NCBI GenBank assembly: GCA_916610825.1
Contig: OU744451.1
Coordinates: 15,709,307-15,773,306, forward strand
Origin: Haliclystus octoradiatus
Lineage: Eukaryota; Cnidaria; Staurozoa; Stauromedusae; Haliclystidae
DNA: 64,000 nucleotides
Direction of reading: 5' to 3'
This document shows positions 1,431 to 64,000 of this stretch, piece after piece (position 1 is the stretch's first letter; each line of letters begins with the position of its first letter). Made by a program: the position numbers and the translations under genes. The notes below the pieces were generated by a model. It saw only the letters and a program-made list of their open reading frames with translations. It made no database searches and had not been told where the DNA came from.

Positions 1431-4400
1431 GATAAACCGAAAAAATAAATACTATGATATTCATTGACCTTGAGTAATAACCATTCAACTAACCCTCGAG
1501 ATACCATGAATCATATATACTTCTATACAAATAAAGTGTGACCTTGATAGAAAGACGGTGGTACATGATATTTATTTACAAAAGTGTACATGGTTTATTA
1601 TATTGGTCATTATGATTAAACTTTGATTTACAAGATCAAAAAACACTATTTCAACAACAAATCATAACAGTTAAATTCATCAGATCCAATGCTTGACTCA
1701 TCGGATAAAATTGGTACACATACATGCATGCATCGAATTGGAAAGCTGCTTGGGAGATTGTATGGGTAAAACTACGTTGAATTCTAAGCAACGGGACCCC
1801 AGAAGCATTGCTTTAGCCGAAGAGGGTCAAGCGGAACAATGTTTATTCGTGTGGTTAGAAGGGCATACTCTGCACTGATTGGTTAGGCTTGAGGGGATTA
1901 TACTACTAACTTTGTTTCGATTAAAAGTCATCTTATGACATTCCACACATGCAAGAACTTTATTGATGGCTGCTTTAAATCTAATTCTAATGTATAGAAA
2001 CATAAAGACTATTAAACGTGAATGCATATCCACTTTTTAAATCTGTTCTTATCGTATTAATCTGTTTTGATATTCAAAATTGCCCCAAATTGCAATTATC
2101 CAAAATTGAACAGAAAATAGTTTATAATTTCACCTATCCGAATTGCAATCAAGTTAAATGGCTATGTTACGCTGTATATAAATTATACAATATAAGTTAT
2201 TTTCGCCTTAATAGCACTTTGATTTATCGATATATTATCAAATGTTCTCAAATATAATTTACCAGTTTGATAAGTCTGTTTTAAAATGAAAATGAAAACG
2301 ACTGCCAGATGATTTCAAAACATGAGAATCAGTATAAGTTATTTTATTCAAATATACGATTTCAGGTTAGCTAGTATTTGAATTAGTTTTATTTGTTAGT
2401 TATCGTGAAACCTGTGTTTGATTCAATAGAATATTGCTTTTCGTATACTGAAGTGGCCATAATATACAGGTGGCTGTTATAACAGGCTTGTCAGTCTTCA
2501 AATTGTATTATCATAAATCAGACATATCCATTAATGTTTGTCACTAAAAGTTTGTGTTGGACATCGTCTTTGTGCTGTACGGAGAGTGAAAACTAGTTTA
2601 ATTAAAACAAACTACAATTTTGTCAGAAATTTTCAAAGATGCTAACAGCTGTTGTGATATTTTTGTAATGATGTTGATTTATCATTTAATATTAATAATA
2701 TTGCAAACACTACTTCAACCGTTTTTCAATGTGTGCAAGAATTGTTCAGCAGTAATTCACATAGTAATTTTTTTAAAGTAATATAGCAACATATTAAAAT
2801 AAGAGCGATATTATCATGTTTTTATTTCAAATCATCTATAAATTGTAAATTCAACATGAAAAATTCAAACAAATAAATAAATGAGCTAATTAAAACATGT
2901 CCTGAATATAATGTATCTACAGTCTTTATCATATCGTATACGCAAAACGTTTTTAATTTTATTGCCATGAACGAAAGCAATGTTTGATGTAAAACGAGGT
3001 CATACCAATCAATTTCACAGGCCATGAAAGAAATTGAATAAAACAGCTTAAAATATGCTATGTTGTGAATTAACAACTTGGCATTATAGGAGGTGAATGA
3101 GAACAAATGGATTATATGGTGATTCTGTGCCTGAATGAATGTTTCAATGCCCGTGTGCATTGTAAGTTACAGCTGCAGTAGCTCAACGAAGCAACCAATT
3201 CTCTTAAATTCTCTTAAACAGCCAACTAGATAACTTTGTTACCTTTTCATATGGATTTTCTTGGCATTTCAATCTAACGTTTGAAGCGACATTTCAAGGG
3301 CTGCTTGGAGCATCAGTTGTTCTTCATCATCGGACGTATTTACCTCTTGCCCTGATGAACGGTAAAATAATAGAAATTGAGATATGAATAAAAAGGTTCA
3401 TCATTTTGATGGCCCGAGAGTACTCTGCCGTTATTTAGGGTTACCCTTTATATATCACTATATATACTTGAGATTCTTATGAAATTTTAAGGCAGAAATT
3501 TCATTGATTTTGATAACTGTGCCTGGAGCCCTCCTTATCACCAGAGCCGCTCTCAGTTCCAATTGGAAAGACGCTAGTCACGAGTGATTTTATGGATGCC
3601 ACTTTCGTTCCGTCAAACCCATGCTCGCCAAATTTGAACAAAGCGCGCGAAAATAATATCATGAATTCGAAAAACTTTTTGTTCAAAATTAAAACATTGT
3701 TTTCAATGGAACGAAAATGGCGATTTTCGAGCCTCAAAAGTTGCGTGTCCTATTTCCAAATGTTCTGTTGAAGTTTATGAGTCTAAACTCCCTGCTGTGA
3801 AATTCTGCGACCATCCTTGAGAAATAAAAACGACACATCCCAATTAAAAACTGTCTTATTTACCCCCTCCCCCGGGGGTCAACCCTTGTATTCAATTCCA
3901 CATATAAAGCACTGTTAGACAATATGGGGTTAAAAAATAGTAGTAAATAATCGACCATTTTAAGTTGCAGATGTTACAAAAACGTACAGCGTACATTTTG
4001 TCCTGGATTTCGCACCTCATCCAATGAAGCAGAATAGGAACATAACGTTTATCTAATTAAATGAGCGAATGTTTATAGACCAGTATTTTTAATCTATTAT
4101 ATTATTTTATTTTCAAACATTTATTCATTTTAATCGTGCCTAGGTATTATCTGTTACACTTTCAATATTTAGTCATGTACACTAATTTAATAACTCTATT
4201 GGCAGCAAAACATCAATGGAGTGCTCGATGCAGATATGAAATGTAAACTAAAAATCAAATGTGCTTTTGTACACAAATTTATATTTACTAATTCATATTT
4301 TAAAATGTGGGTTATATTACATTGTGAATACATTGGATTTTACCCTCTATAAATAAAGATAATGATGATGATGATGATTCATTAATTAACCGTTTATCTT

Positions 4401-7400
4401 CCGTGTATTATCTGGGCAAAAACAAGCTATATCCATCTTATGCAGTCATGAATACATTTCGCGCTTACCTCGTATTCGAGCTGATGCTGTATCACTTGCA
4501 GTTACCGCATGGCAAGTAAAGAAGTCGTTAGCCTTACATGCAGGTAAATTGCCTCTCACAATAAATACTGTATTGCCTACGAAAACGAAAGGGAGATGAC
4601 AGTACTTTTATTAGATTGGAGGATTTTATAACGCCATAATGTCATTGCTAAATAATTCGGATAACTGCAAGATTCGGCTATATGCAATGGTAATCGCTGG
4701 CTGTTTTGCCTTAATTATAATTAGTAATTGTAATATCTTTCTCCAATACGAAACATGTTTGAAATGTCTAATTAATTAAGCTTCTATACAACATATCACC
4801 TGCTCACAACGACCGGCTCAACAACTGACTGCTATGTACAGGTAAACCTTACCTTCCTTCTGTAGTTGATCCAAAAATAGATGAAGATAAGTATCTGATA
4901 TTAGATTGGGCTGCTCCATCAATGAGTTCAAATTAAACCACTAGATAAGGAAAACAAGTACTTTCATAAACTAATATAGATGCTACTCATGATGCTATAC
5001 GGGGACATGTCATTTTTAAGGGACCTACCTTTTAAGAGATTTTGTTGAAATTTTGAAATTTGTCTCAGGATCCTCCGAATTTAACACAACTTACAAAGCT
5101 ACAATTAGTTTAAATTTCAGGAATATGTTTCGATATTTCAAGTCTCACTTACTTCAACTACCGTGAAATTTTGCAAACAAATGGGAATATTCAAATTGGC
5201 ACCTTCCACAGACAAAATCTTCATCCCATGGGTTGGGGGATGCTACAACAATGTGGAATCTAAGGTTAAAGAGTAACTATTCAATGGTCTACTGTTCTTC
5301 GATCGGAAGGTAATTTCTAAAGGATGGGTATTACCAAATAAAAACGTACTCATGTCATTTGTTCACAGCAGGTATTCAGTGAGATTTTAATTTCTGCTTT
5401 TTGATTTACTTATTTTTTATGCTTGATTAATTAAATTATAAATCTAGTAATAAAATTTATTTTTGATGAAGGGCATACAAATTTAAAAGGATTTTATTTT
5501 AGACACCAGCTCGCTGTTTTGAATTGGTATCAATGGTTACAAAAGCGCGGTCGGATTTCCAGGTTAGACATCACAGGTATAAGATGTAGTTAGTAGATAT
5601 ATATAATAGAGAGTATAGACACCTCAAAAGTTAGAGCCTGTTATCAGTGAGCCCATAAATGGATATTCGAATCTTCCGATTTTTCTAGCATTCGCAAAGT
5701 GAGTTCATTCCATTCATTGAAGCACTGCAATATTTCAAAATGCTCAAGCTGTGACTTTGTACTCTTTCTTGCCTGTGTCGTGTCTTAAATCAATTACTGG
5801 GTCTCTTTTTAAGTTACTTGATAAAATAATATTGTCTTTCTTCAATAATAATACCTGGGAACCAATCTTTCTAATTGTAAACCAATGTCGTTGCATGTTA
5901 CAAATATACGCCATCTCTTTCCTAATGAAAAACATAAAACAATAAGAGCATTAACCATCGGATTTATTCGAAATATTATTCAACGGAGGTGTACGATACT
6001 TACGAGAATTGGATTTGTACTGCTCCGACAGGAGTATTTTTCTACATTGAGACTAGATTGGATCTGTTAATCTTTTCGTTCTTTTATAAAGGTTTATTTT
6101 TTTTATTTTTTGGACCCAACATCTCCAACTAATCGTTATGACTTCAATTAAGCATTTTTGAGTTTGAGTTGGAGATGAAGTCTATTGAGTTATTTAGTTA
6201 CTTAGTATATAATGATGAAAGTTATCGCTGACGCTAAGGTTTTCGAAGAATTATGCAAAGAAAATCTTAAATGTGAAATTAATCAGTAACCATCTATTTC
6301 AGCACGTAAAGTATTCGAAGGATTATTTTGTATTTAAACTACAAGTACTATATGTATGAGCCTTTTAAAAATCCGCCTTGAGTCACAATAAAGATGGCTT
6401 AAACATTACTCTGATGATGATAATGATGATGATGATGATGATGATGACGATGAATATATTTTCGGAGCAAAACTCGGACTCAGGATTTACTAACAACATT
6501 TATTAGGATCCGTAGTCTAGAAACTCCGACGAAATATTCAACGACGGTGAAATATGGCATGATTACTGGAGAAAAAGTAAGACATTCTTGTGAGCAATTG
6601 CGCATATGAAACATGACAAAAGAAGTAATAACACATTCCTAATATGTAATCTTAAGGAACGATACGTAATTAATTCAAAAGTTTCAATGTGAGGCATCAC
6701 TAAGAGGCATTTGCCACATATATGGCCACATATATGCCTGAGGCATATAAGTGGCGGTTTGTCTAAGTCAAACTGCTTTAGTCAGTTTGTATCACGAATA
6801 GACCTTCGGCATACAGACTCTTGATTTCATGGTGAAGAGGCTTTCGTCTAGATGCTATATCAGGCATCGAAGGGTTACACAGCAGGAGAATTGGCTATAC
6901 CCAATCACATCCGATTAATCAATCATTTGAGAAAATTTTTGCGTAAACTTAAAGGTCCTGTTCAGGCAAAAACAGCATGGTTATAGCAATAGTGCAGTAG
7001 TTTTTTTTGTATAATCTCGTATTTGTATTTGTCAGCCTCATTTTTATGTAATCAGAATTGATATAGTTAAAAAGTATAGCCTTGTTTGACTTAATTTAGT
7101 TTGTATTTAAATAGTTTGTTTTGTAATTTATAGGTCAGTGTGTTGTTGGAAGGCATTGTGAGTTCATCAGCTCTATGAACACAATCCTAATAAATTGTAC
7201 TTGATTGCATTCAAGATAGTCTTTTTGCTAATTGACAAACATAACCAATGGCATTACTCAACATTATAGAGTCCTCATTTTGGCCAGAACAAATAATGAT
7301 GATGATGATTCGCATGAAAGGCACAATGAAAGAGGAAACATAGACATAAATTCGATTAATAGACTTTTTGAGAGATAAATCGAGATCTCAAAATTAAATG

Positions 7401-20709: not shown

Positions 20710-21777
20710 TTAGTTTGCTTTCTTTGTGGTATTGACAACATCCCATACATGATTAATGCCGTATGGTGTTAAGTGGTATATATAATATTCCAGAAGATAC
20801 ATTTGATTTGGAACGACATAATGAAATGTAACAGAGAAATCAGAGCAACAGTCAGGACCGGTAACAACTGGATAATTACTATATTGATGCAGCCAATTGC
20901 CATTTTCTATAGAACCAGGAATTAAATGATAATTAGGGGCAAAGGGATGAAATCTTTCCCTACCAAGATTATCTCTTGAATCTGTCGGGTGGATATTAAC
21001 AGCTTGAAGGCATTTACCAACTTCTACATCTTCATTTGCTGCTTTTTTATGACATTTTTCTGGGTCTTCCATTATTTTTATAAATTTTTTTAATGTCCCT
21101 TTACTAAAAACATAACCTGCCCCACCACTTTCATACCCACCGAATGTTTTAAAATGGCGTCCAAAATAGTAATCTTTCTCTGTGTCATAAATTGAAACTA
21201 AATAGCGTAAATTTTCAACAATAACAAATGTATCATCATCAGCTTTAATGAACCAATCTGCTTTATCAAAATAATGCTTATATACGTGTGTCCAAGAAGC
21301 TCGCGTTTTTAACCAAAGATTTTCACGACCTTCAGGAACATCTAGTCCTACAGCTGGGAAACTTTTATCTTCAACTGAGCTCATGAAAAGTAAAATATTA
21401 CATCTTTTCCCCCATGTATTATTCACAGCAGCAGCTTTAGGGAATAATGTTTTTGGACTTGTCATAACCCAACATAAAACACGGTTTTCTTTCGACATTT
21501 TCCGAGCAAGAACATCTCCATGTAGATGATGAGGTTCGTTTTCATCGCGAAAATTGAAATTTATTCCATCAAAATTGTCATTGACATTATTTTTTGGTAT
21601 TTCTTCAGCATGATTATGCATGTAATAATCTGTTTCGTTTACAACATCACGTATGTAAACAGAACTTTTATAGCTTGCATGAAGTGTTAATAAGTTGAAC
21701 TCACTATTAATAACAGCAATAAGGATGCCAATACTTAAACCAAAGGAAAAGCCAACTAACATATCGTTACGAACCAT
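20710..21777 (-). CDS. C1GALT1: Core-1 beta-1,3-galactosyltransferase (T-synthase family), intronless
   Basis: Type II Golgi enzyme that adds galactose in beta-1,3 linkage to O-linked GalNAc, making core-1 O-glycans. The 355-residue frame has a short cytosolic start, a membrane anchor at about residues 6-23 (GFSFGLSIGILIAVI), a stem, and a CAZy GT31-type catalytic domain. Visible motifs are [18 protein letters not shown], the nucleotide-sugar/metal site KADDDTFV with its DxD core, GGYESGGAGYVFSKG, EDVEVGKCL and the C-terminal CCSDFSVTFHYV. Length is close to the family norm (about 360). The DDD triad is intact, which argues for an active enzyme rather than the chaperone relative COSMC. The whole coding region is one exon, so it may be a retrocopy or a lineage with lost introns. 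A damaged second copy lies upstream at 24775-25290. Confidence 0.93.
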   Translation of the reverse strand: MVRNDMLVGFSFGLSIGILIAVINSEFNLLTLHASYKSSVYIRDVVNETDYYMHNHAEEIPKNNVNDNFDGINFNFRDENEPHHLHGDVLARKMSKENRVLCWVMTSPKTLFPKAAAVNNTWGKRCNILLFMSSVEDKSFPAVGLDVPEGRENLWLKTRASWTHVYKHYFDKADWFIKADDDTFVIVENLRYLVSIYDTEKDYYFGRHFKTFGGYESGGAGYVFSKGTLKKFIKIMEDPEKCHKKAANEDVEVGKCLQAVNIHPTDSRDNLGRERFHPFAPNYHLIPGSIENGNWLHQYSNYPVVTGPDCCSDFSVTFHYVVPNQMYLLEYYIYHLTPYGINHVWDVVNTTKKAN

Positions 21778-21789
21778 TCCACAACGATT

Positions 21790-22684
21790 TAGGTTTCAGC
21801 CTTAAAACATGAACAACCTTCATGAGATGAATTCAGCAACTGCTTTGAATTTTCGTTTGTCTATATTTTCATGCAAAGACACACATGAAAACAACTACCT
21901 TTGTGTCATTTGTCCTAACTGTCATTTACCAAACCCGACGAGTCACTATAGTGATACTGCTCGTATAGTGGCATGCCTATAGTTTGCAGAGATAGTTTGT
22001 CCTGCGATTATACTGCATGAATGCGTCACCAGAGATGCGCGTCGTCGAAATGCTTCGCTTCAAGCTAAGCGGGGGCACCTCTGATTTACGGAAAACGGAA
22101 AGAAATTTACATTTTTCCGTAAATTTCTTTCCGTTTTCCGTAAATCAGATTTGCCCGCGAAGCGGGGCATTGCTTTGAAAACAATATCACACCTTGATAT
22201 CACACCTGTTATTCTAGATTTTTAAACTGCTGTGTCCAGTCGTTTCCATAACAATCATAATGATCATGGGTGATAAGTAATATGGACGTTATCATAATTC
22301 ATTTAATAGAATTATATAAACAAATATAATATGGTTTTACGTCTTGGAAACTCCCATGGTCACATTCACGGCATTCACATCATCACTAAAGGTTGATCGC
22401 ATCAGGGGGCCATAAAGCCCTCTTGAAAGTATGGTCCCTGGTATAATTTATGCATTAGGGACCGTTCATTATTTATTCCAATGAGGGGGTGTACAGAAGA
22501 GAGCTGAAATTCTCTGGAAAAAATTTCTTACCCACCATTTCAAGTGGAAATAAATAAATTACCCACCCTCAAATACTTTAATCTTGCTACTGAACTGTTA
22601 CTGAACTAATACCATACACTGAAGCATTATTGATTTTTTAATAATATTCATAATGTAAAACTAAAAATGAACTTGATATTATAG
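21790..22684. other. Spacer with a foldback sequence
   Basis: Contains the palindrome at 22080-22148; otherwise no gene recognised. Confidence 0.4.
22080..22148. repeat. Near-perfect 69-bp foldback palindrome
   Basis: Arms TCTGATTTACGGAAAACGG... and its complement face each other across an 8-9-base loop. Outside them, looser inverted pieces (AATGCTTCGCTT... and ...GAAGCGGGGCATT) suggest this is the core of a small foldback MITE of about 120 bp. Confidence 0.8.
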
Positions 22685-37434: not shown

Positions 37435-40400
37435 TTCCCGCCTTCTGTGGCGATGGACGTGTCTATTACGCGCTCCTAACACAGATCATATAGAAGTCAC
37501 GTTTTTGCGTTTGATTTTCTTAAAATATTTACATTTTAACCATGTTTTTATCCTTTATATGTTTTTAAGTTTTATATTATATGTTTATGCTTTCAATAAG
37601 TTTCTGCAAGTTATCTTTTACAATATTATGATTATTGATCAAACTCGGAGATTTGTCAACAATGGTTAACTTAACATATAGCCGAGATGAGTTATTACAA
37701 TTAAATCATTCAAGATCTGCGCACAAACATATACTACTATTGGATTGTCCTAGAAGAAAGAAATCAAAATGCAGGAGAGGAGGTCAGAAAATTAGGATAA
37801 TAAAGTTTTTGAGGTCAATCAGGAAATCTTCGATCATAAAAACACAATCAGTATGTAAAAAGATTAGTAATTGGAAAACTTGTACAAACAAAACATACAA
37901 TATTGATGTGATTGTTTCTCAGCAACAACAGAAAACAATAGGAAACAATAGGTGCAGTGAACAGTCAAATCTTACTAAAATACATCCATTGAAAGGAAGT
38001 TTGACAAATCACAATCATCTATTCAAAACAATTACGTTTACCCTACTTAATGTCCGATCACTCAACAACAAATCAGCTGTTGTTAACGACTTTATTGTCG
38101 ACAATGATATTGACATAATGGCCATAACAGAGACATGGTTGTTGCCAGGCAACACAAATGGGTTTATTATATCTGACACAACGCCCAATGGTTATACGTT
38201 TAAACATAGTGCAAGAGAGGGACGTGGTGGTGGAGTGGGAATCGTTTACAAGACATCATTGAACATCAAAATTGTAGCATCGAGAAAATTCAGCTCCTTT
38301 GAGTACATCACCGCAATATTTTCAACACCAACTGGACCAATACAAATGATTTCTTTATATCGGCCACCCCCTTCTCAAAAGAACAAACTATCATTTGGAA
38401 TGTTCTTCTCTGAGTTCACCACTTTACTTGAACTGATAACATCAAGCACAGGATGCTCTAGCCTTATTATCGCTGGAGATTTCAACATACATGTAGATAA
38501 TACCAGGAACACTGACGCTATAAAGTTTATCCAACTCTTGGATACTTTCAATCTTGTTCAAAACGTAACAGAAGTAACACATCAAAAAAACCACACCCTA
38601 GATCTCATCATCACTAGGAAAGGTGAACAAATATTAAGTACAGTATTTCTTTCAGATCCCCAAATATCTGATCATGTAGCTGTAAATTGCAAATTGCATA
38701 TCAATAAATCCCAGAAGCCGAAAAAACAACTTACTTTGCGTAACATCAAGAGTATCAGCATTGAAAATTTGAACTCAGATATTGCCCGATGCACCACCGT
38801 CGAAATTGTTCCCACTGATGGTAACATCGATGAACTTGTTACTCACTATGAAAATTCTCTACGCAGTATACTGAACATTCATGCACCCCTAAGAACAAAA
38901 ACAATCATAATTCGACCAGCTGCTCCTTGGCTCACCTCAGAAATCCGGTTAGCTAAAGTTGAAAGACGGCGAAGGGAGAGAAAATGGAGAGGAAATAGAC
39001 TTACAGTCCATAAAATACTGTACAAAGAACAGTCTGTCTTAGTCAATAAATTGATATCAGAGGCAAAAACAGAATATTACTCCAATCTAATCTACAATGC
39101 CAAAAATGATCAAAAACAACTGTTTGGAATCGTCAAAGGCATAACCAAAGAAAAGAGTAATGACGAATATCCTGCAGCCAGCAATCCAAACGATCTTGCT
39201 GATAATTTTGCTGATTATTTTCAGTCAAAAATAGCTAGTATCAGAGATGTTCTTGCACAAGAGCGCAATGAAAGAGTCAACCCATTTCCAGATGACACGC
39301 TACCACCATCAAATAGCACACTGCATTCGTTTACACCTGTGACATGTGATGAAGTATCTCTGCTTACGAAGAAGCTAGCAAACAAGTCATGTGACTTAGA
39401 TCCACTACCAGCTGTACTAATGAAAACCTGTATTAGCACTCTGAATCCAGCAGTTACTAACATAATAAATGCATCAACTAAATCTGCCTTTGTCCCTACT
39501 TCTATGAAAGATGCCATTCTTCAACCTCGTTTAAAAAAGCCATCCATGAACACAGCAGAATATCAAAATTTCCGTCCAATTTCAAATCTAAAGTTTATTA
39601 GTAAAGCAACAGAGAAAGTAGTTGCCCAGCAAATTTATCAATATATGACAATCAATAGCTTACATGAGAAATTCCAATCTGCTTACAAGATCTATCACAG
39701 CACAGAGACGGCATTGATTAGAGTCCATAATGATATTTTGCATTCACTTGACACCAGAAAATCTGTGCTCCTCTTACTCCTCGATCTATCGGCTGCGTTC
39801 GACACGGTTGATCATAACATTCTTTTGTACCGTTTACAACATAGATTTGGAATCTCTGGTCAAGCACATAGCTGGCTTCAATCCTATATTAACGAACGAT
39901 CATTTACAGTTCATGTTGCTGATGGAATTTCTGCAAAGAAGCAATTTAAGTCAGGTGTTCCGCAAGGAAGTGTTTTAGGACCACTCCTATTCATCATGTA
40001 TATATCACCATTAGGGGATATAATAAGAAACCATGACATTTGCTACCATCTATATGCTGATGACATACAGCTATATACTGACTTTGATTCAACTTCTACA
40101 ATTGATACACTTAATGCAAAATCTCGAATTGAAAACTGTGTAAAAGAAATTGAGGCTTGGATGACATGGAACAACCTAAAGCTTAAAATGGAAAAGACTG
40201 AGTTCATAGTGATAAATGATAAGCCTCAAGATGATCCTCTATTACAAACCATCAACTTATGTAATAAATTAATTCCAAAACAATCAAAAGTCCGGAACAT
40301 CGGTATAATAATGAATTCGACAATGTCAATGGATCATCACATCAATAACATTTGCAGAACATGCTTTTATCATTTGAGGAATGTCAGTAGAATCAGGAGA

Positions 40401-41083
40401 TATCTCACAAAAAAATCAACAGAATCTCTGATCCATGCTCTGATAACTACTCGGCTGGATTTTTGCAATGCGTTGCTATATGGTGTCCCAAAAAAATACA
40501 TCGAAAAACTGCAAAGAACTCAAAACACAGCAGCAAGAATTGTAGCCCTTGCTGGAAAATACAATCATATTACACCAATATTACAAAGTTTACATTGGCT
40601 ACCAATAGAACAAAGAATTGTATTCAAAGTGTTAGTGATAACTTTCAAAGCAATTCACAATCTGGCACCTACATACATTTCAGAACTTGTTACTCTTTAT
40701 AAACCTAGAAGATCACTAAGGTCTAAAAACAGTAATACTCTGAATTTTAAATTGTACAAACTATGCCGTTATGGCGGAAGAATTTTTAGCCATGCTGCCC
40801 CCGCCGTGTGGAACAATCTCGCAGTAGAAGCAAAATATGCAATAACAACTGAAACTTTTAAACAACTAATAAAAACGAGTCTTTTTAAAATTGCTTTTAA
40901 ATGTTAAAGTATTTACAGTATATTTCTTAACCAACTTTTAACTTATTTACACTACTGTTTGAAGTAATAAAAAAATAAAATAAAATATATATATATTTAT
41001 AATATTATAACATGTAAAGCGCTATTGAGCAACTATTGGAAATAGCGCTCTATAAATAAATAAAGTTTATTATTATTATTATA
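37435..41083 (+). mobile_element. L2/CR1-group LINE, probably full length
   Basis: About 3.65 kb, with a 5' leader, one long ORF and a 3' tail AAGCGCTATTGAGCAACTATTGG...AATAGCGCTCTATAAAT followed by (ATT)n. That tail hairpin and repeat type is typical of L2/Crack-like LINEs. It lies between two halves of a MITE, which fixes its boundaries. Confidence 0.85.
37635..40907 (+). CDS. LINE ORF2-type protein: endonuclease plus reverse transcriptase
   Basis: A 1090-residue uninterrupted frame. A basic N-terminal region (about 1-130) precedes an APE-type endonuclease with NVRSLNNK, ITETWL, AGDFNIHVD and SDHVAVN (about 135-350). The reverse transcriptase follows, with FRPISNLKFISKATEKV, LLDLSAAFDTVDHN, SGVPQGSVLGPLLF and the catalytic YADD (HLYADDIQLY). 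The order and the C-terminal RLDFCNALLYGVPK and LHWLPIEQRI motifs are those of CR1/L2/Rex1-group LINEs. The protein nicks target DNA and copies its own RNA there. No frameshift or stop is present and the active-site residues are intact, so the copy could be recently active. A first Met is also available 10 codons later (37662). No separate ORF1 is seen. Confidence 0.93.
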   Translation: MIKLGDLSTMVNLTYSRDELLQLNHSRSAHKHILLLDCPRRKKSKCRRGGQKIRIIKFLRSIRKSSIIKTQSVCKKISNWKTCTNKTYNIDVIVSQQQQKTIGNNRCSEQSNLTKIHPLKGSLTNHNHLFKTITFTLLNVRSLNNKSAVVNDFIVDNDIDIMAITETWLLPGNTNGFIISDTTPNGYTFKHSAREGRGGGVGIVYKTSLNIKIVASRKFSSFEYITAIFSTPTGPIQMISLYRPPPSQKNKLSFGMFFSEFTTLLELITSSTGCSSLIIAGDFNIHVDNTRNTDAIKFIQLLDTFNLVQNVTEVTHQKNHTLDLIITRKGEQILSTVFLSDPQISDHVAVNCKLHINKSQKPKKQLTLRNIKSISIENLNSDIARCTTVEIVPTDGNIDELVTHYENSLRSILNIHAPLRTKTIIIRPAAPWLTSEIRLAKVERRRRERKWRGNRLTVHKILYKEQSVLVNKLISEAKTEYYSNLIYNAKNDQKQLFGIVKGITKEKSNDEYPAASNPNDLADNFADYFQSKIASIRDVLAQERNERVNPFPDDTLPPSNSTLHSFTPVTCDEVSLLTKKLANKSCDLDPLPAVLMKTCISTLNPAVTNIINASTKSAFVPTSMKDAILQPRLKKPSMNTAEYQNFRPISNLKFISKATEKVVAQQIYQYMTINSLHEKFQSAYKIYHSTETALIRVHNDILHSLDTRKSVLLLLLDLSAAFDTVDHNILLYRLQHRFGISGQAHSWLQSYINERSFTVHVADGISAKKQFKSGVPQGSVLGPLLFIMYISPLGDIIRNHDICYHLYADDIQLYTDFDSTSTIDTLNAKSRIENCVKEIEAWMTWNNLKLKMEKTEFIVINDKPQDDPLLQTINLCNKLIPKQSKVRNIGIIMNSTMSMDHHINNICRTCFYHLRNVSRIRRYLTKKSTESLIHALITTRLDFCNALLYGVPKKYIEKLQRTQNTAARIVALAGKYNHITPILQSLHWLPIEQRIVFKVLVITFKAIHNLAPTYISELVTLYKPRRSLRSKNSNTLNFKLYKLCRYGGRIFSHAAPAVWNNLAVEAKYAITTETFKQLIKTSLFKIAFKC

Positions 41084-50041: not shown

Positions 50042-53000
50042 CAGTGATGTTTTGGTGGGGGAACGCGGGGGAACGGCGTTCCCCCACTACTTTTTCCGGG
50101 GGAACGCCGTTCCCTCACTATTTATAGTTAAATTGAAGTTTAATGTGTTTATTTGTCTGTGTTTGCTTAACTGTTCCGAGAAATATTGTTAAACTTAATT
50201 GAATATTATAGTTTGAATTTAAACAATATAATAATTTCGAAATCAAGAAATACAACGTTAAATATTTAATATTTATAAGGGGGAGTTTCACTATATTATA
50301 ATTTGAATTGAGATTTGTAAAATATAATAGTTTTGTAATTTGAGGAAATGAATTAATGACTCTATCCTATTAATTAAATGATGAGCAATATTGATTTTTT
50401 GTCTAGACTGGTAGCCCTTTGTGTCTTATCATGTTTCAAACAATCAAAGTAGTTAGTATTTTTTACGCTGCCTGTGCCATTCCTTGTGAACTGTTTAAAG
50501 CAAAGTAAGTTACGCTGTATGAGATTGCAATATTTAAATTGTAATGTCTAAACAATCAAAACTAAGCGGGTTTTTCACAAAACGTACCTCTGTAGAGGAT
50601 AGTCCTGTTAATTATAGTCAAGAAGAACCATCGGATTTTAATACAGGTACAAGCGATTTGGGTTTAACAAGTGATGACGAAGCTAGCATAACCGATAGTA
50701 CTACACCTACACCTGGGCCAAGCCATACATTGAGTGTCGCCCATCAGCCCAACGCATGGACAGTAGAAATGTGGAAAGAAAAACAAAATTCATATCCGTG
50801 GCTGATAGCGAAGGATGGTCAATTGGGTTGTAGCTCTTGTTCGAGGGTCAAAGACTTAGCAATTTACAAAACGCAAGGTCTGTATTTGAGTAAAGAATAG
50901 AAAGAAGGAACTGTTACTCAAAGTGGTAATTCTCGCGAAGCACAGCTTACTTCTTTACGTAAAAAGATTTTTAAACATCTCCACTCTGATGCTCATTTAA
51001 AAGCGGAAGAAATTATCATGAAATCTGGCTTGGATATAATGCCTGGTCATATAAACAAAATGAACAAAAAAGATATTGAATCAACCCTTAGAGTATTTCG
51101 CAGTAGTTATTACATAGCAAAGCATGACAGGCCATTAAACGACATGAGTGATATAATTAAGTTACAAGAACAGAATGGATTGGACATGGGTATTTGCCTG
51201 CACTCGAGACATTCTGCCACCTCTATAATTGACCATATAGCCGAAGAGATGCGAGCAAGGGTCTGCAAGGCAATTAGGACAGCAGATGGAATGATATCGG
51301 TGCTAATAGATGAATCTACTACAACATCAGATAAATCTACATTGATTATCTACATCAAAGCACAGCTGGTCAATGGAAATGAACCCCAATTTTTATTCCT
51401 TGAACTTGTTGAACTTGATAATGGTGAAGCAGCCTGTGACATTTATAAAGCCCTACTTCTTTGTTTAAAAAAATATGGGTTTGATATTGACTATTTGAAA
51501 AATCATTTACGCGGATTTACTTCAGATGGTGCCAGTGTGCTCACTGGTAAAAAATCTGGAATTCGAACTTTATTAGAGAAGGATTTTCCTACTATTATCA
51601 CGTGGCATTGTGTAAACCACAGACTAGAACTTGCTGTCAATGACGCTATAAAAAATATTAATGGAATTAACCACTTTAAGATTTTTATCAATAAGTTGTA
51701 TTCATTATATAGTCAGTCTCCCAAAAACAAGAGCGAACTTCAAGAAGCTGCTGGTGACTTGGAAGCAGAAATTTTGAAAATAGGAAGGCTTCTTAGTACG
51801 AGATGGGTGGCAAGTAGCTACCGTACAGTATTTGCAGTATGGCAGAATTATGAAGCACTATACAAACATTTTAAACTTAGATCATCCTCGGGGAGTAATG
51901 CTGCAGAATTCTCTGGCTTATGTACAAGAATTCAGTCGCCAGAGTTTTTGACTGATTTGACCCTGATGGGGGACGTTTTATATGAGTTGAAAGAACTTTC
52001 AGAAGGCATGCAACATCGTGACATGAACATTGTCAAAGCAGATAGATGCATAAAGCGGACAATTCGAAGTATAAAGGCTCTAAAAACTAAAACCGGCACA
52101 AAATCATTAATGGCATACGATTACATTGAGAAAGGTTTCCTGAATACAGTTCCGCTGATATCGAATCCCCGCCATGTCGGGATTAATGCTGATTCTTTTA
52201 TTGACGCTCTAGTTACCAGCTTAAACGATCGCCTTTTTGCAACATGTGCATCTGGTAAAACTAGAACACATGATTTGTATGAACATTTACTGAAGGAGTT
52301 TTCTGTACTATATCCGGTCTACTGGCCTACTGATGTCGAATACTTTGGAACTAGAGAAATAAGATCACTGTGTGATCGATTATCCCTCAATAGTAGTTTG
52401 GTTGTTCCAGAATTCCATGATTTTGTTGATTGCCAGGGAAGAAATGCACCACCAAATCTTCAAAAATTAATAAATGCTTGTGAAGCTATAGCAGTATCAT
52501 CTGCAGAATGCGAAAGGGGTTTTAGCCAGATGAACATAATTTGTACGGACATTAGAAATAGATTATTAATAAATAGAATATCTAATCTTATGTTTATCAA
52601 ATTACACGGCCCCCCTCTATCTTTATGGCAGCCAAATGAGTATGCTGCAAAATGGCTGCGATCTAATCATCGATCAGCGGATGATCCTAGAGTAAAAAAA
52701 GCAAAGTTCGACGAACAAAATGACGGAGATGCACCTCAACAAATTGTGTGGAACTTACTATAACACGTTATGTATTAAAGACAGTAATTAGAGCTTTTGA
52801 TAATCTATCTATAATTTTTGTATCCATTTACATTTACACACTTACACCAACATCATAACACTAAATATTATTATATATTCTGTTTTACCTATTTATGTCT
52901 ATTCGATGATCTATTTGTGGTAACATTACTGTCCCTGTTATCACTTTCTTAATTGATAGAATGCACTACAGAGCCTCTAAGACAGCCTAAAATCGAAAAT

Positions 53001-57779: not shown

Positions 57780-59990
57780 ATAAATATGTAGAATAATAAA
57801 ATCAAACTTTGATTCACTTACATGATACTGAAAGAAGGATTCAAAATTGGAGAGGTATTTCTTCTCAGTTAAGACGAAATGCCAAGCTTTTCCCTTGAAT
57901 TTCAAATCCAGAGCTTGCTTCACAAGTGGGCGACTTAATAAAGGATGTGAACCGTTACGGTGAACAAAACAAATGTCTTTGACAGTCTTGTGGAGTAAAG
58001 GCCGTCCACTTTCGTCAGGAAATGCAATTTTGGAAAACATGGACTCTATGACACACACATTGTAGGAACAGCATTTACAACTTTTACTTAGGTTATAAGT
58101 TGACTCTTTACTGAATAATGTGTACCAAAAATGTTCATTAGATAATTTTGCAAAGCTTTTTCCTTTGACCAGTCATGTTTGCGGAGATCACCGATCAAAC
58201 AAATGATATAACCAACCTCAACTATAACTTACTCTTCCTCAAATTGTTTTAGAAGCAGAATGTAACCATCTGTTTCATCGATCGATGTAGGAGGCTCTAG
58301 GTCCAAAATATCCCGGGTTGAAAAATAATAAGATCTAGAAAATGGGGAACTGGTATGTCAGCTGAGCACACACACTGAATTGATAAATGTAATGCACAGA
58401 CCTTGCCATTTCTGCATGGTTTTATTATCTTTCCATTCCCCTTCTATACCACAGACACATAATGTAGAACAAAACTTCTTTGCATCTTTGCAGGGGCACC
58501 CTGGTCTCTTCCTTGACCTTCAACTGCAGGTACATACGCAAGAAACCTGTTACGATAAAATGAGCTAATCAACATGCTGACACACTCTGTGCATCTCTGT
58601 GTCACACAGCTGGAATAAATTTAACAATTAAGTGCACTTACAGAATTTACTCATGTTTGCAAATAAAAAATGATCACATACTTCAGGATCAGCTACCAAT
58701 GTTTGTTGGTTGACTTCTAGTCCAATTTGAGAATCATAACAATTACAATGATTTTTATCGACCCGATCCATTGAAATATCTGACGCTTTGTCGTTAGATT
58801 TGACTCTGATGAATAATGCAAGAATTAAAGATGAGGACGAAGACCTCTTACCTAAATCTTCTGTAATACTTCAAAGTTTTGAGGTTCAATTGTCAAAGAC
58901 AATATTTTTAGAGCTGTAAATGATTTAGTTTACTCCGGAAACAGTTTCTTTGGCTCATTTTCTAACAAGGGCCCGCGACTGCATTTTTCATTATGCATGA
59001 ATGCCAGAAACATTATGCATCACATTTGTTCACAACTCCTGAATTCATTATAATAATTGCAAATTTCAAAATTAGAACATATTGTAATATGAAACTATAT
59101 GGTTCGGCAGTGCAGTGTCACATATGAAACAAACCTTTAATTTTGCAACGTCTCCTTTGCACTGTTGAGAACAGTACCAAAAGTGGTTGACGATTGGATC
59201 GATCCAAATTGATATTTCCTCCTAACCTTTGACTTAAGCGCCAGGGTGCAAAGCTTTGTTGATGCTTTTAGCTTTGTTCCACGTGTCCATTTCATGAAAT
59301 AGATTTTCCAGGTTAGGATAACAAACTGAAGAAGAAATTTTTAAAAAGATAAAACTTAGACTTTAGATAAAATATTTAAAAAGATAAAACAGTCATTTTT
59401 TTTAAGCATAATGATCATTGCAGTCACCTTTCAATTCTCTAATCAATTTTGCAACACTAGTCGAAGCATCAGTAGTTAAATCAGAGACCTCCATACGACC
59501 GCAAAAATGTATGAGAAGTTTATGAAGGGCAAAAACTTCCATAACCGAGGAGTTACCCTTCGTTTCTCTCTTGTCGATTTTCTTAAAATCAACAACAATC
59601 TTTGTGAATTGCTCCATTACTACATAATAACAATATGATACTGAATGGCCAGGAGGATCATTTCTTCCGTCACCAGCAGGCGCAACAGAAGATGGAGTAA
59701 TTACTTCAATTATTGTCTCTTTCATTTGCTTCCAAAAACTAATAACAACATGAGATGTGTATAAGCGCTGACAATTATAATAAGATGTTGCAGAGGATAA
59801 CAAAGATTGAACAATTCTGCAAATAACAAAATTTTAGAAAATAAGTTGCCAGATAATGTAATTGAAGAAGACAACAGTACATCATTTACATAAACATTTT
59901 TATTATTGGTTACTCGGAGTACTCCAGAATACTTCCACTGTCCATGATGACCGTCTTCACACCACCATCTTGAATCAACAACAAAGCCCC
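57780..59990 (-). pseudogene. Transposase-like gene (GDGRND-P-GHS family), several segments
   Basis: Read on the minus strand from 59.99 kb down: WWCEDGHHGQWKYSGVLRV and VNDVLLSSSITLSGN (59830-59990); a 133-residue frame 59402-59803 with APAGDGRNDPPGHSVSYC, KKIDKRETKGNSSVM and SDLTTDASTSV, whose Asp residues look like a DDE nuclease; then YPNLENLFHEMDTWNKAKS and, in another frame, IDPIVNHFWYCSQQCKGD (59140-59330); further pieces at 58230-58316 (donor GTAAGT) and 57815-58060 (KALDLKFKGKAWHF-like region, NFESFFQYH). The motif order matches a widespread animal transposase-like family sometimes linked to THAP domains, perhaps Kolobok; assignment is from memory. Some breaks have splice-like borders, others are frameshifts, so a decayed transposon is more likely than a domesticated gene. 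Confidence 0.65.
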
Positions 59991-60219
59991 ACATTTTCCT
60001 GCTTGCTAACGTTAAACGATTTCACAAAAATATTACCATCGCTTTGGAAACATTTACATATATCCCCTTTCAACTTCTTCAACTTATTTACAGTCACAAT
60101 GACTCTCATACCATCTGCCAATTTACCCATTTCTTCTTCTTCATCTCCTAACCTTAACATTTCCTCAAAACCACCATCTACCAATTTCAAAACTTCTTTG
60201 GCTAAGTTTCTGTTTGAAG

Positions 60220-60830
60220 ATGGCCTTTATTCATCGCTGACATCCATTGAAATACAATCAACGTTAGTGTGTTCCAAGTCCGGTCCAAAGAAACTCGAAT
60301 GTCGTTTATAAGTGAGTGTGGGTTGAAGACGGCATAATTGTATTTGTTGTTCTAGGATAAGTTGTGTTAAGTTGTTCTTAAAGATAGGTTTTAGGAGTCG
60401 TTCAAAGTCAGGATGATATGGGAGTACTATTGGTAGGATTTGTTTGGATGTTGTTCGTGTTGTTGAGGGTTTTTCAGTTTTTTGTTTTGAAAGTATGAGT
60501 TTCATTGCTTTGAGGAGGGTTGAGGGATAGATAATCTCTCTCTATGAATGAAAGGTAGAGTAGATAAAGTCTGAAGTGTAGGATTTTAGGGTCCAATATA
60601 TTTTGGTAGTAGCATGCTGTCTGAGATTTGACGATGCCTAATTTAGTGTCTTGAGAGTGAAAGGATTTGAAGGGTAGGGTATTGTTGGTATCTGTTGGTT
60701 TACGGTATAGGTCTGTGGACAGCGTTCCATTATTAATACCGATATAGAATTTTAGATCTAAAAATGCAATATTTGTTTTGGATGATTCCTTAGTGAGTTT
60801 TATTTGTTGGCTTGATTTTTGTTTATTTCA
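60220..60830 (-). pseudogene. Penelope-like or DIRS-like reverse transcriptase fragment
   Basis: The minus strand encodes FLDLKFYIGINNGTLSTDLYRKPTDTNN followed by LPFKSFHS in one frame (about 60610-60830), then in frame 60227-60505 ILPIVLPYHPDFERLLKPIF and LTYKRHSS. This order (FLDL...LYRKPTD...HP.FE) is the end of an RT palm/thumb and connector as in Penelope-like elements. Stops and frame changes show decay; the catalytic part of the RT is not present. Confidence 0.7.
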
Positions 60831-60855
60831 ATTTACGCAATATCTTGACATATTA

Positions 60856-61378
60856 TTACAAGACTACAATAACAGAAGCAGACTGCAATTTATAGTCTCT
60901 GTATGATACTTCACAATAGTATGTACCACTAGCAGAATACAACTTTAAAATATTATGGTTATGTCCTGCCAGGATTTCGACATGGTTTCGAAACCAGGTA
61001 TACTGTATTTCATTAGCATCACCATTACCCGTTGCCACGACCCCTGTGTAGTGGCTATCTCCATCAAAACCATAATTGTGTCAGGACCGTGGATAATCCT
61101 TGGAGCGATTGATTGCCTTCCTTCGTCGATGGGGTATGAATATGCTATATTTTTCATGTCATACTCAAAATTTAAATGCGGAATGCCATTGATAGATATT
61201 ATTCCCACAATGAATCCATCCAGAAGAGGATTGTAGCGTTGCTCGTTGACATCATAGTACCGGTCAGATCTCGATTGGAAGGCACCTTTCCATGATGTTG
61301 TGAGCATGGTTTGCTCAAATGAGCCATAAGTTGACGTGGTTACTCTCAGAAGGGTAATTTCTATATCTTGGTCGACAC
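60856..61378 (-). other. Coding-like segment with an Ig-like end, frame-shifted
   Basis: From 61378 downward an open frame continues out of the duplicated transposase piece. It carries SRSDRYYDVNEQRYNPLLDG and LNFEYDMKNIAYSYPIDEG, then shifts near 61060 into a frame with QYTWFRNHVEIL and SGTYYCEVSYRDY, which resembles the W and Y-x-C core of an immunoglobulin domain. It ends in a stop at about 60856. No parent gene recognised. Confidence 0.4.
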
Positions 61379-61764
61379 TAGTCGAAGCATCAGTAGTTAA
61401 ATCAGAGACCTCCATACGACCGCACAAGTGTATGAGAAGTTTATGAAGAGCAAAAATTTTCATAACAGAGGAGTTACTCTTCGTTTCTCTCTTGTCGATT
61501 TTCTTAAAATCAACAAAATCAACAACAATCTTTGTGAATTGCTCCATTACTACATAATAACAATATGATACTGAATGGCCAGGAGGATCATTTCTTCCGT
61601 CACCAGCAGGCGCAACAGAATATGGAGTAATTACTTCAATTATTGTCTCTTTCATTTGCTTCCAAAAACTAATAACAACATGAGATGTGTATAAGCGCTG
61701 ACAATTATAATAAGATGTTGCAGAGGATAACAAAGATTGAACAATTCTGCAAATAACAAAATTT
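61378..61764 (-). repeat. Duplicate of the transposase segment at 59455-59840
   Basis: About 385 bp nearly identical to 59455-59838 (few substitutions, one 9-base insertion of ATCAACAAA type), same orientation. It carries the same GDGRND-P-GHS motif. Its outer edge, AACAAAATTTT, is where the viral-like sequence begins. Confidence 0.93.
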
Positions 61765-61765
61765 T

Positions 61766-62167
61766 TCCTTACTAGCTAAACAATCCCTTCCTTATAGGAG
61801 AAGCGCATAGGTTGCCCCTAGGGACGCCTGTACTCAAGGTAGATCCACCGAAAACATTACTAATCGATAAAGCAGCAAGACACCCCTCAGCCTACCGTGG
61901 CCTCAGTCACTTCGGTAGATAGTGCCCCACCGCCCCCCTAGCCGTAACTAGGAGGGCTACCCCTTTGCCCATCCCTCCAGAAAGGATTGCCTATTTTTCA
62001 TTCACTTGCGGTTCCAGGTTACCAAGCCTTTCCCCGCTAGAACCGGGTAGATCTGGGAAATCTACCCAACTCAGACATAACAAAACAGAAACAATAACAC
62101 TACAATAATATATTTGCAACGACCAGCGTCACACCCGTACAATAACTCACCATATTCCAATACTCCC
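61766..62167 (-). other. Hairpin-rich non-coding tail next to the RdRp
   Basis: GC-rich, without ORF. On the minus strand it contains consecutive strong stems: GGGTAGAT/ATCTACCC (about 62041-62063), GGTTC/GAACC enclosing a G-rich loop just beside it, CCCTCCTAG/CTAGGGGGG (about 61935-61960) and CTACCG/CGGTAG (about 61892-61918). It follows the RdRp stop, so it is placed like a viral 3' UTR. Function inferred from position and structure only. Confidence 0.55.
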
Positions 62168-64000
62168 CTAATTACACATAACCCTCGACTTACCCTCTCT
62201 CATTAAACGACTCCCTACTTCTTCTTCCACCCACAACAATCTCCTCTCAAACATCTTCTCCCCTAAGTTACGAGCGGAGAACAAACCAGACACGACACTC
62301 TCAAAGGAAGACACCAAAAACCCGGCAAAATCTGATGAGAAATAATCAGTAAGGGGGATCGGCACCTTCCAGTCACCCAATAACCATCTCGCATACATCC
62401 TCTTCGTTAGCCGCTTCTTCATCCTCTCGACGTGTGGCAAACTCTCTACATCCACGATTCTCTCTTCCTCACCCCTATCTAAAGCTATCCTCTCCAGCAC
62501 ACCACGCACAGCCCCCGACAACTCCCTGCTCTTCTTAACCTTCACCGGTCGATCAAGCACTTTTCCGATCCACCCTCCCCCACTACAGGTTCGAAGAATT
62601 CCTTCTCCACCTCAATACGACCTAAGAGAGCAGATTCCCCCAGACCCCACCCTCTCACTACGGCCTCTCTCACTCTATCCCACTCCAAAAATGACAATTT
62701 CCACCCGCTCAACCTCCCCTTCCACGCCCCGAGATCAGTAACTATCCTCTTCAAAGGCCGCAACACTCTAAACCTCAACCACAAACCACCCCACCCTTCT
62801 CTCAACACCTTTCCAAAAACACACTCTCCCCAAACGCCCCCGCCCCCCATACTCACAGGTGTCAGACAAAAAGACCTCATCTCCTCCTCACTCATCCCTG
62901 CCTCCACCCCATCAGCAAGCATATGCCCAACCACCTTCCTCCAGACGCCACCCCTTATCCCCAGATGATGCCATTGGCTAAGCCTACTACTCACTCTCAT
63001 CCAACCGGTAGGTGCCACAGCAAGGATAGGATTACGCCACAAAAGACTTACTATACTACGCGCTACGTACCCGCTAATCCTCTTCTCACTTATCACTTTC
63101 CGCAAAAACTCCCCTCTCTCCCTACTAAAGAATATCTTCCCAGGATTCACTTCATACCCGATCTTCTGGTAACAATCTATCATATAACGTACCTGCCTGA
63201 GATTCTCCAGACCGAATATGATATCATCACCTTGGGCACAAAAACCGTGGACACGAACATTCTCACCCAACCTCTCTTGTACCATATTTCTCACAACTCG
63301 AAACGACCCGATGTTTAAGAGTGTATCCAGTAACCCGGTCCAACGCCAACCGCTCCCGACCCCATTCTCCCACACACTCCTTTTCCCCATATACTCAATC
63401 AAAGGTGGTTTTTGCTCGAAACAACGCACTATCACCTCTGCCACTTCACCGACCTCCCCCCCGACCTTCTCCTGGATAAAATCCGCGATTACTCCCAAAC
63501 ACACTAAAACGCTGCTTTTCGACTGATGTTGGTCGAATTGAGACTGGTCAAAAGGAATTTTCCAGATACTCCTATCCCCACACATTAACCGTTCCTTTTC
63601 CATTACCCTGTTCACGCCACTCGCCCCCCGAATAAAGTAGACACATCACTACCGAGCAACCCCCTTCCAAAACGTGACTCACATAATCCATCTTCCGAAA
63701 TAACTTATTCCCACTTTTCACTACCGCCCGGACCTTCCCACTCTCCGACTTTTGCATAACTTTGATCACATCCTGAGTCACCTCCTTCAGCTCTTTACCA
63801 ACATCAGCATCGCTTAAATACTTTGCATCAATGGTTTTATACCCCTTTGTCCGCCTCCTCTTCCCATCTAACCACACTTCACTCTTCAATCCGTCACCTG
63901 CTCTACCTCTCGTCCATACCCCAGTACGAACCCAGTCCTTAATACTAAACACATCCTTCGGCCTATGCCACTCCTCCTCCAACACCCCGCGGATCTCTTT
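62168..64000 (-). pseudogene. Toti-like viral RNA-dependent RNA polymerase (endogenous viral element), cut by window edge
   Basis: Copies viral RNA in the parent virus; here embedded in a cellular-looking contig. Three overlapping frames: 63572-63999 (open at the window edge, with KSESGKVRAVVKSGNK, a pre-motif region), 62542-63615 (core) and 62168-62560 (C-terminal part, stop at 62168). In the core frame: motif A DQSQFDQ (residue 23 on), motif B GSGWRWTG (87 on) with a following Asn, motif C QGDD (128-131), a motif D-like YEVNPGK and motif E-like GEFLRKVI near 168. GDD and this layout point to the Totiviridae/Ghabrivirales side rather than to a reverse transcriptase (YADD). The outer two segments share a frame and the middle one is shifted, so two compensating indels are likely, close to runs of C. 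Composition is GC-rich with a purine-rich coding strand, unlike everything else here. Confidence 0.85.

What the first reader, a model, noticed from the sequence alone, without database searches (positions are those of the whole stretch)
62168..64000. Endogenous toti-like RNA virus polymerase in an animal genome contig
Seen: an RdRp with motifs A (DQSQFDQ), B (GSGWRWT), C (QGDD) and E-like (GEFLR) on the minus strand, in a block whose GC content and strand skew differ sharply from the 62 kb before it. Known: such RdRps belong to RNA viruses without a DNA stage, so a genomic copy needs capture by a reverse transcriptase, and LINE and Penelope RTs are present in this window. Inference: a germline viral fossil, or, if intact and expressed, a co-opted antiviral template. 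It probably extends beyond the window.
Basis: partly seen in the sequence, partly recalled or inferred. Interest (0 to 1): 0.9.

Follow-up and report, generated by a model that had tools for sequence, protein, structure and literature searches.

The report
Young toti-like virus insertions, stalked jellyfish
A stalked jellyfish chromosome carries a DNA copy of part of an RNA virus related to toti-like viruses, one of at least four such insertions found in that genome, and the two longest copies suggest that circulating strains of the virus were captured more than once and rather recently.

Summary
The RdRp block is a 3,951-bp insert (window 61766 to 1.7 kb past the window end) in a scaffold that matches chromosome 6 of the stalked jellyfish Haliclystus octoradiatus. 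A host tandem array with a 1,930-bp unit lies on both sides. Intact units show the empty site: about 88 bp of host DNA lost, no target-site duplication, no poly(A). The insert holds the 3' part of a Ghabrivirales genome: a coding region taken to be the capsid end, RdRp, and 3' UTR. The closest named relatives are Fushun totivirus 3, Shuangao toti-like virus (Lebotiviridae) and Dumyat virus, 35-40% identical in the polymerase.

Three more insertions were found. EVE2, on another chromosome, is about 96% identical, with unrelated neighbouring sequence and the same viral 3' end. The two differ with dN/dS 0.058, so most of that divergence arose in replicating viruses: separate, young captures rather than duplicates. 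Both long copies are damaged (frame changes; QCDD and a stop in EVE2), so co-option is not supported. Toti-like EVEs are common in arthropods. This is a new member of a known kind; my limited literature searches showed no report from Staurozoa.

The parts
61766..64000 (-). EVE1: endogenous viral insert; continues past the window to C7:15775022 (3,951 bp in all; viral 5' side is to the right)
   Evidence: host array ends at 61765, resumes at region coordinate 65717 = L009:6024; junction alignment against intact array units; composition
61766..62167 (-). viral 3' untranslated region; its outer end (viral 3' terminus ...AGTAAGGA) is shared with EVE2 on another chromosome
61932..61957 (-). hairpin in the 3' UTR; between EVE1 and EVE3 both sides changed and pairing is kept in 5 of its 10 pairs
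   Evidence: alignment A3, columns 91-116; only two sequences; neither folds more stably than its shuffles (z -1.33 and 0.04)
62168..62611 (-). ORF piece, C-terminal part of the RdRp (147 aa); joined to the previous piece by a frame change not present in EVE2
62542..63645 (-). ORF piece, RdRp palm and thumb (367 aa), Pfam RdRP_4 and RdRP_1
63529..63549 (-). RdRp motif A, DQSQFDQ (motif letter recalled)
   Evidence: invariant D33, Q34, F37, D38 in alignment A2 of 8 rows
63337..63357 (-). RdRp motif B, GSGWRWT (motif letter recalled)
   Evidence: invariant S98, G99, W102, T103 in A2
63223..63234 (-). RdRp motif C, QGDD (reads QCDD in EVE2; motif letter recalled)
63572..64000 (-). part inside the window of a 405-aa ORF piece, N-terminal half of the RdRp, continuing past the window
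   Evidence: tblastn with P0121-P0125
59454..61765 (-). host tandem array, unit 1,930 bp, left of the insert; resumes right of it to region coordinate 70875; carries an immunoglobulin-like exon

Best explanation
[quoted passage not shown] Shown: it sits in a host tandem array with the empty site visible in sister units; three more insertions were found in the genome (one ~96% identical with other flanks and the same viral 3' end, one 96% fragment, one more distant fragment at 66-72%); the two long copies differ in the manner of sequences under strong purifying selection, so they come from separate captures of diverged, replicating strains. Inferred: in a germ cell, a cellular reverse transcriptase began at the exact 3' end of the viral RNA, ran a variable distance towards the 5' end, and the cDNA was joined to a chromosome break with loss of about 88 bp and 4 nt of microhomology. 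Since capture the copies have decayed neutrally for a short time. I do not think they make a working polymerase; any small-RNA role is untested.
For: Host array on both sides and empty units. Chromosome-level assembly whose size, 33 scaffolds and chromosome lengths fit. RdRp family, six full-length relatives including Fushun totivirus 3, BFVD best matches Shuangao toti-like virus and Dumyat virus. Four places in the genome. No similarity next to the insert between the EVE1 and EVE2 neighbourhoods (only two short repeats, 51 and 84 bp, far from the insert), between EVE1 and EVE4 or between EVE2 and EVE4. EVE1/EVE2: 148 substitutions in 3,643 aligned bases, 131 transitions, dS 0.173, dN 0.010, dN/dS 0.058; 97 of 125 coding substitutions at third positions against at most 55 in 2,000 neutral simulations. 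No stop in the 1,017 codons compared, P 0.0075 under neutrality; but see against.
Against: No reads were seen, so coverage and junction-spanning reads are unchecked. The capture route is not shown: no poly(A), no target-site duplication. The stop count leaves out the frame overlap 928-1207: there EVE2 has a stop in the upstream frame (EVE1 position 944) and one at the very start of the RdRp-frame ORF (931) where EVE1 has none, so the stop argument is weaker than the third-position argument. Two frame changes are shared by copies that I read as separate captures (near EVE1 positions 600 and 2090), which simple post-insertion decay does not explain. CpG is 0.87 in EVE1 against 0.65 in window 1-59000, but the EVE2 left flank is also at 0.86, so CpG says little about age.
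Confidence: 0.93

Rival explanations
1. Chimeric contig or contamination with an exogenous virus sequence.
For: Composition differs sharply from the flank; no reads were available to check.
Against: An RNA virus is not expected in a DNA library (knowledge). The same host array lies on both sides and resumes about 88 bp further on within the unit. Four separate places on two chromosome-scale scaffolds, with lesions. Assembly from 68x HiFi, QV 56.6 (PMC9975415).
Confidence: 0.03
2. One insertion copied by segmental duplication or by retroposition of its transcript; the copies then diverged as neutral DNA.
For: EVE1, EVE2 and EVE4 are 94-96% identical and EVE1/EVE2 share a 3' end and two frame changes.
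Against: dN/dS 0.058, third-position excess and transition excess between EVE1 and EVE2 are not neutral; neighbourhoods unrelated. For EVE4 alone the data are too few (8 private sites, 4 at third positions), so EVE4 could be a copy.
Confidence: 0.06
3. A co-opted host gene family or antiviral template: the copies are kept by selection in the host.
For: Low dN/dS between EVE1 and EVE2; long ORF pieces; toti-like EVE co-option is known in planthoppers (PMC10636211, passages).
Against: Frame changes in both long copies, QCDD and a stop in EVE2, truncation at different 5' points, an internal loss in EVE2. A piRNA role would not need open frames and is untested.
Confidence: 0.05

Closest known systems
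Endogenous toti-like viral elements of arthropods (ToEVEs; PMC10636211, passages read)
   Same: Partial capsid/RdRp copies of toti-like viruses in animal chromosomes, usually disrupted by frameshifts, several per genome
   Different: Host is a staurozoan cnidarian; two long copies can be argued to be separate captures of diverged strains and share an exact viral 3' end
Fushun totivirus 3 (P0123; NCBI taxonomy: Ghabrivirales, unclassified Totivirus)
   Same: RdRp alignable over most of the piece, same motif pattern (its motif C reads YGDD); its RdRp ORF carries an N-terminal stretch without counterpart in the shorter relatives
   Different: 39.8% identity in the core; its RdRp ORF is unbroken
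Shuangao toti-like virus (Lebotivirus shi, Lebotiviridae, Betatotivirineae)
   Same: Best BFVD match, E 2e-15, 35% identity over 326 columns
   Different: Distant; full ORF order not compared
Piscine myocarditis virus and Giardia lamblia virus
   Same: RdRps among the BFVD matches
   Different: More distant: 24-26% and 16-20% identity

Membership tests
Non-retroviral endogenous viral element | Viral sequence joined to host chromosomal DNA on both sides | tested here: met
   same host array left and right, empty site in sister units (in the assembly)
Non-retroviral endogenous viral element | Derived from a virus without a DNA stage | tested here: met
   RdRP_4/RdRP_1 RdRp, nearest to toti-like viruses; no RT or integrase family among Pfam matches of the pieces
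Non-retroviral endogenous viral element | Reads span the junctions; inherited in the germline | not testable with these tools
   no reads or population data held
Ghabrivirales (toti-like viruses) | RdRp of the toti-like type with motifs A, B and C | tested here: met
Ghabrivirales (toti-like viruses) | Capsid ORF upstream of and overlapping the RdRp ORF | tested here: inconclusive
   an upstream coding region overlaps the RdRp-frame ORF (EVE1 928-1207) but no capsid family was recognised
Lebotiviridae | RdRp clusters inside the family | tested here: inconclusive
   best BFVD match is a lebotivirus; no reference tree of the family could be built; the tree holds 8 sequences and no classified lebotivirus
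LINE-mediated insertion | Target-site duplication and poly(A) tail | tested here: not met
   EVE1: ~88-bp target deletion, no poly(A); EVE2: the only shared word of 8 or more bases does not lie at the insert ends; the 5' end of EVE2 is placed by composition only

The most novel reading that the evidence does not exclude
A toti-like virus persists in Haliclystus and its germline has sampled it repeatedly and recently. The frame change near EVE1 position 600 lies at a long G run; EVE2 and EVE4 are each exactly three bases shorter there, and coding constraint holds on both sides in different frames. If so, the virus itself may decode its capsid region by slippage or frameshifting at a poly-G tract, a recoding signal that I do not know from Ghabrivirales (recalled, not searched), visible here through its DNA copies.
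Probability: 0.15. Interest if true: 0.6.

Novelty: new member of a known kind. Interest (0 to 1): 0.42.

Why it matters
It extends the host record of this virus group to a staurozoan cnidarian, and integration in the chromosome argues that the jellyfish was a real host and not just a carrier of infected food (inference). Because two long copies appear to come from different strains and share an exact 3' end, the loci are a handle on how cells reverse-transcribe viral RNA without a poly(A) tail.

Tried and rejected
Single-sequence structure of the 367-aa piece: pLDDT 32.7, not used. Structure with the 8-row alignment: pLDDT 58.6, palm better. The PDB fold search gave nothing at E <= 0.001, and a profile search of PDB sequences listed 27 distinct sequences, all named as 3D polymerases, genome polyproteins or RNA polymerases, at E 1.6e-4 or worse. 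The first homology search with the 367-aa piece found none of 4,450 candidates at E <= 0.001, I think because of the length filter. Viral-contig scans with the piece and with P0121 gave no relative; a 17-base 3' UTR string gave one 59.5-kb contig that I did not examine. Rfam at E <= 1: none in L009, L015, L017. tRNA: none in the same three. The 3' UTR of EVE1 as a whole is not more stable than shuffles (z -0.43). My heptamer pattern (XXXYYYZ with Y A or T, last base not G) found no slippery site in the overlap 928-1207. I first thought that all frame changes sit in G runs; one search does not bear this out for all length differences, so I claim it only for the run near position 583.

Rejected readings: contamination, segmental duplication, co-opted gene (see rivals).

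Full report
What the window is. The window is C7:15709307-15773306 of a 261,861,806-base genome in 33 contigs. C7 is 26,960,693 bases and C5 28,991,210. The genome note of Haliclystus octoradiatus (PMC9975415, part 1 of 2 of the text read) reports 262 Mb (261,898,343 bp in a figure legend, 36,537 more than here), 33 scaffolds, chromosome 6 of 26.96 Mb and an N50 length of 28,991,210 bp. A host gene in the window (20713-21795, C1GALT1-like) has Hydra vulgaris and Clytia hemisphaerica as its best named matches among the 120 of 586 listed. I therefore take the host to be this stalked jellyfish, the window to lie on chromosome 6 and C5 to be chromosome 4. The name is inferred; no tool gave it.

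The observation. It matches Pfam RdRP_4 at 3.4e-14 and RdRP_1 at 2.6e-6. The other four ORF pieces of the insert match no Pfam family at E <= 1. The 142-aa part of the 405-aa piece that lies in the window has three matches at E 0.086-0.21, all below their cut-offs.

Boundaries. BLAST of L009 against the joined region shows a host tandem array with a 1,930-bp unit from 59454 to region coordinate 70875. It is interrupted from 61766 to 65716 by the 3,951-bp block. A further 640-bp stretch right of the insert (L009 about 6395-7037) also lacks array similarity and was not followed. Aligned to intact units, the left junction is ...AACAAAATTTT then the insert; on the right the host resumes at CCAGAATACTT. 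About 88 bp of the unit are missing, and the viral sequence (as it continues in EVE2) and the host unit share CCAG there. There is no poly(A) and no target-site duplication. A 74-aa ORF of the unit matches Ig_2 (3.1e-6). The insertion point lies just upstream of what reads like a splice acceptor of a minus-strand exon (inference from sequence). Array units are mostly 96-98% alike and, of the units seen here, one holds the insert, so I infer that the insertion is younger than the array.

Content. Read 5' to 3' (minus strand), the insert has ORF pieces at 1-621, 584-1207, 928-2142, 2072-3172 and 3106-3546 in alternating frames, then a 402-nt 3' UTR. tblastn with five of the six relatives (P0121-P0125) places RdRp similarity between about positions 1243 and 3456; with the sixth, P0126, only 2153-2884 matches. 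Upstream lies a coding region that I take to be the capsid end (inferred from position; no capsid family matched).

Relatives. With the length filter widened, 6 of 5,567 candidates score E <= 0.01: P0121 5e-57, P0122 2e-53, P0123 (Fushun totivirus 3) 1e-45, and P0124-P0126 more weakly. Over 240-247 aligned core columns, EVE1 is 39.7-42.9% identical to P0121-P0123 and 32.9-35.2% to P0124-P0126. An unrooted 8-sequence tree puts EVE1/EVE2 on a branch between these two groups (bootstrap 92, 97 and 99 at those splits; 55 and 60 inside the groups). BFVD search with a moderate model (pLDDT 58.6) ranks Shuangao toti-like virus, Dumyat virus and an unnamed 964-aa entry first, then piscine myocarditis virus. 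TM-scores are only about 0.45, so sequence carries much of that score. NCBI taxonomy files Shuangao toti-like virus under Ghabrivirales, Betatotivirineae, Lebotiviridae, Fushun totivirus 3 under Totivirus (unclassified) and Dumyat virus under unclassified Riboviria.

Other copies. Search with the 367-aa piece gave 4 matches: the window itself; C5:20498493-20499578 (98% aa, EVE2); and two adjacent stretches within C5:22112668-22113215 (55% and 73%, one TGA; EVE3). Search with the 405-aa piece gave 6 matches: the window, three at EVE2 and two at C7:13245018-13245403 (EVE4). A DNA search with the upstream 1,204 bases gave 3 matches (EVE1, EVE2, EVE4), the EVE2 356-aa piece 3 matches at the same places, and the 3' UTR 2 matches (EVE1, EVE2). 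The last search missed the 3' UTR part of EVE3, so such searches are not exhaustive; the tool also calls its counts lower bounds, and the family search PF02123 got no answer.

EVE2 starts at C5:20497998 and is about 4.7 kb long (its far end placed by composition). It goes further in the viral 5' direction than EVE1 and lacks EVE1 positions 3533-3833. Its motif C reads QCDD. EVE4 is an 846-bp fragment, 96.0% identical to EVE1 and 93.7% to EVE2. No similarity beyond the viral stretch was found between the EVE1 and EVE4 regions or the EVE2 and EVE4 regions; between the EVE1 and EVE2 regions there are two short repeats of 51 and 84 bp away from the insert. EVE3 is an older or more distant fragment (66-72% nucleotide identity) with its own internal loss, but it keeps the RdRp C-terminus and part of the 3' UTR.

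Separate captures. EVE1 and EVE2 differ at 148 of 3,643 aligned sites, 131 transitions and 17 transversions; dS 0.173, dN 0.010, ratio 0.058. Of 125 coding substitutions 97 fall on third positions; placing the same substitutions at random 2,000 times gave a mean of 39.5 and a maximum of 55. These counts use 1,017 codons outside the frame overlaps and leave out codons with gaps. In those codons no stop arose, which happens in 0.75% of the simulations. Within the overlap 928-1207, which I had left out, EVE2 has a stop at position 944 in the upstream frame and at 931 in the RdRp frame, near the start of that ORF; EVE4 has none in the codons it covers. The stop at 944 may be post-capture damage. 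The third-position result stands: neutral DNA does not diverge like this, so most of the difference was made while the sequences replicated as virus, and the two insertions are separate captures. If drift after capture is neutral, the nonsynonymous rate bounds it, summed over both copies, at about 1%. CpG is not depleted in EVE1 (0.87, against 0.65 in window 1-59000), but the AT-rich left flank of EVE2 is at 0.86 (right flank 0.43), so CpG is weak support.

Mechanism. Both copies end in the same viral 3' context (...AGTAAGGA); EVE2 carries a second short copy of that end. Their 5' limits differ. This fits reverse transcription that starts at the RNA 3' end and stops at variable points, followed by end joining; end-to-end template jumping by a non-LTR RT is a known behaviour (recalled) that would explain it. 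A LINE with a 1,091-aa open frame holding endonuclease and RT domains lies at 37632-40904 and is one possible source; nothing links it to the event.

What remains unexplained. The frame of coding constraint changes near EVE1 position 600 (frame 0 to frame 1), around 1050-1200 (the expected capsid/RdRp overlap), near 2090 and near 3140. The last is not in EVE2, which has one 524-aa frame there. The first lies at a long G run: EVE2 and EVE4 are each 3 bases shorter there than EVE1, so all three share the frame change. A change near 2090 is shared by EVE1 and EVE2. Shared changes in separate captures point to the virus (recoding or slippage), to a hot spot of the RT, or to sequencing error in G runs; I cannot tell these apart. 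They are also the best argument left for a common founder copy.

Literature. Toti-like EVEs are common: a screen of 1,188 arthropod genomes gave 5,686 in 593 species (PMC10636211, passages read). My searches (toti-like EVEs in general, cnidarian or Haliclystus cases; listings and abstract starts only) showed no report of a totivirus EVE in Staurozoa; the library lacks most subscription journals, so this is weak evidence of absence. PMC9324324 and PMC12779748 were seen in passages only.

Verdict. A real element of a known kind in an unusual host, with good evidence of repeated, rather recent capture.

Noticed in passing
window 61905-62045 (-) and L017:4370-4510 (-): The 3' UTR stretch is conserved between EVE1 and EVE3, with a hairpin in which both sides changed and pairing is kept in 5 of 10 pairs, and near-identical stretches beside it; no Rfam match, and neither sequence folds better than its shuffles.
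   Followed up: partly
EVE1 positions 584-621 (L009 about 5400-5440): Frame change of the upstream coding region at a long G run, shared by EVE1, EVE2 and EVE4; EVE2 and EVE4 are three bases shorter there.
   Followed up: partly
window 59454-61765, continuing to region 70875: Host tandem array, 1,930-bp unit, holding an Ig-like exon and a stretch that resembles a Penelope-type RT C-terminus (resemblance recalled, no Pfam match).
   Followed up: partly
L009 about 6395-7037: About 640 bp right of the insert that do not match the array units; nature unknown.
   Followed up: no
window 37632-40904 (+): LINE with one open frame of 1,091 aa holding endonuclease and reverse transcriptase domains.
   Followed up: no
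window 50901-52760 (+): 620-aa open frame with a weak hAT dimerisation match (8e-4, below Pfam's cut-off): perhaps a DNA transposon.
   Followed up: no
L015:1948-2607 (-): RT fragment (RVT_1) about 2.4 kb from the EVE2 3' end.
   Followed up: no
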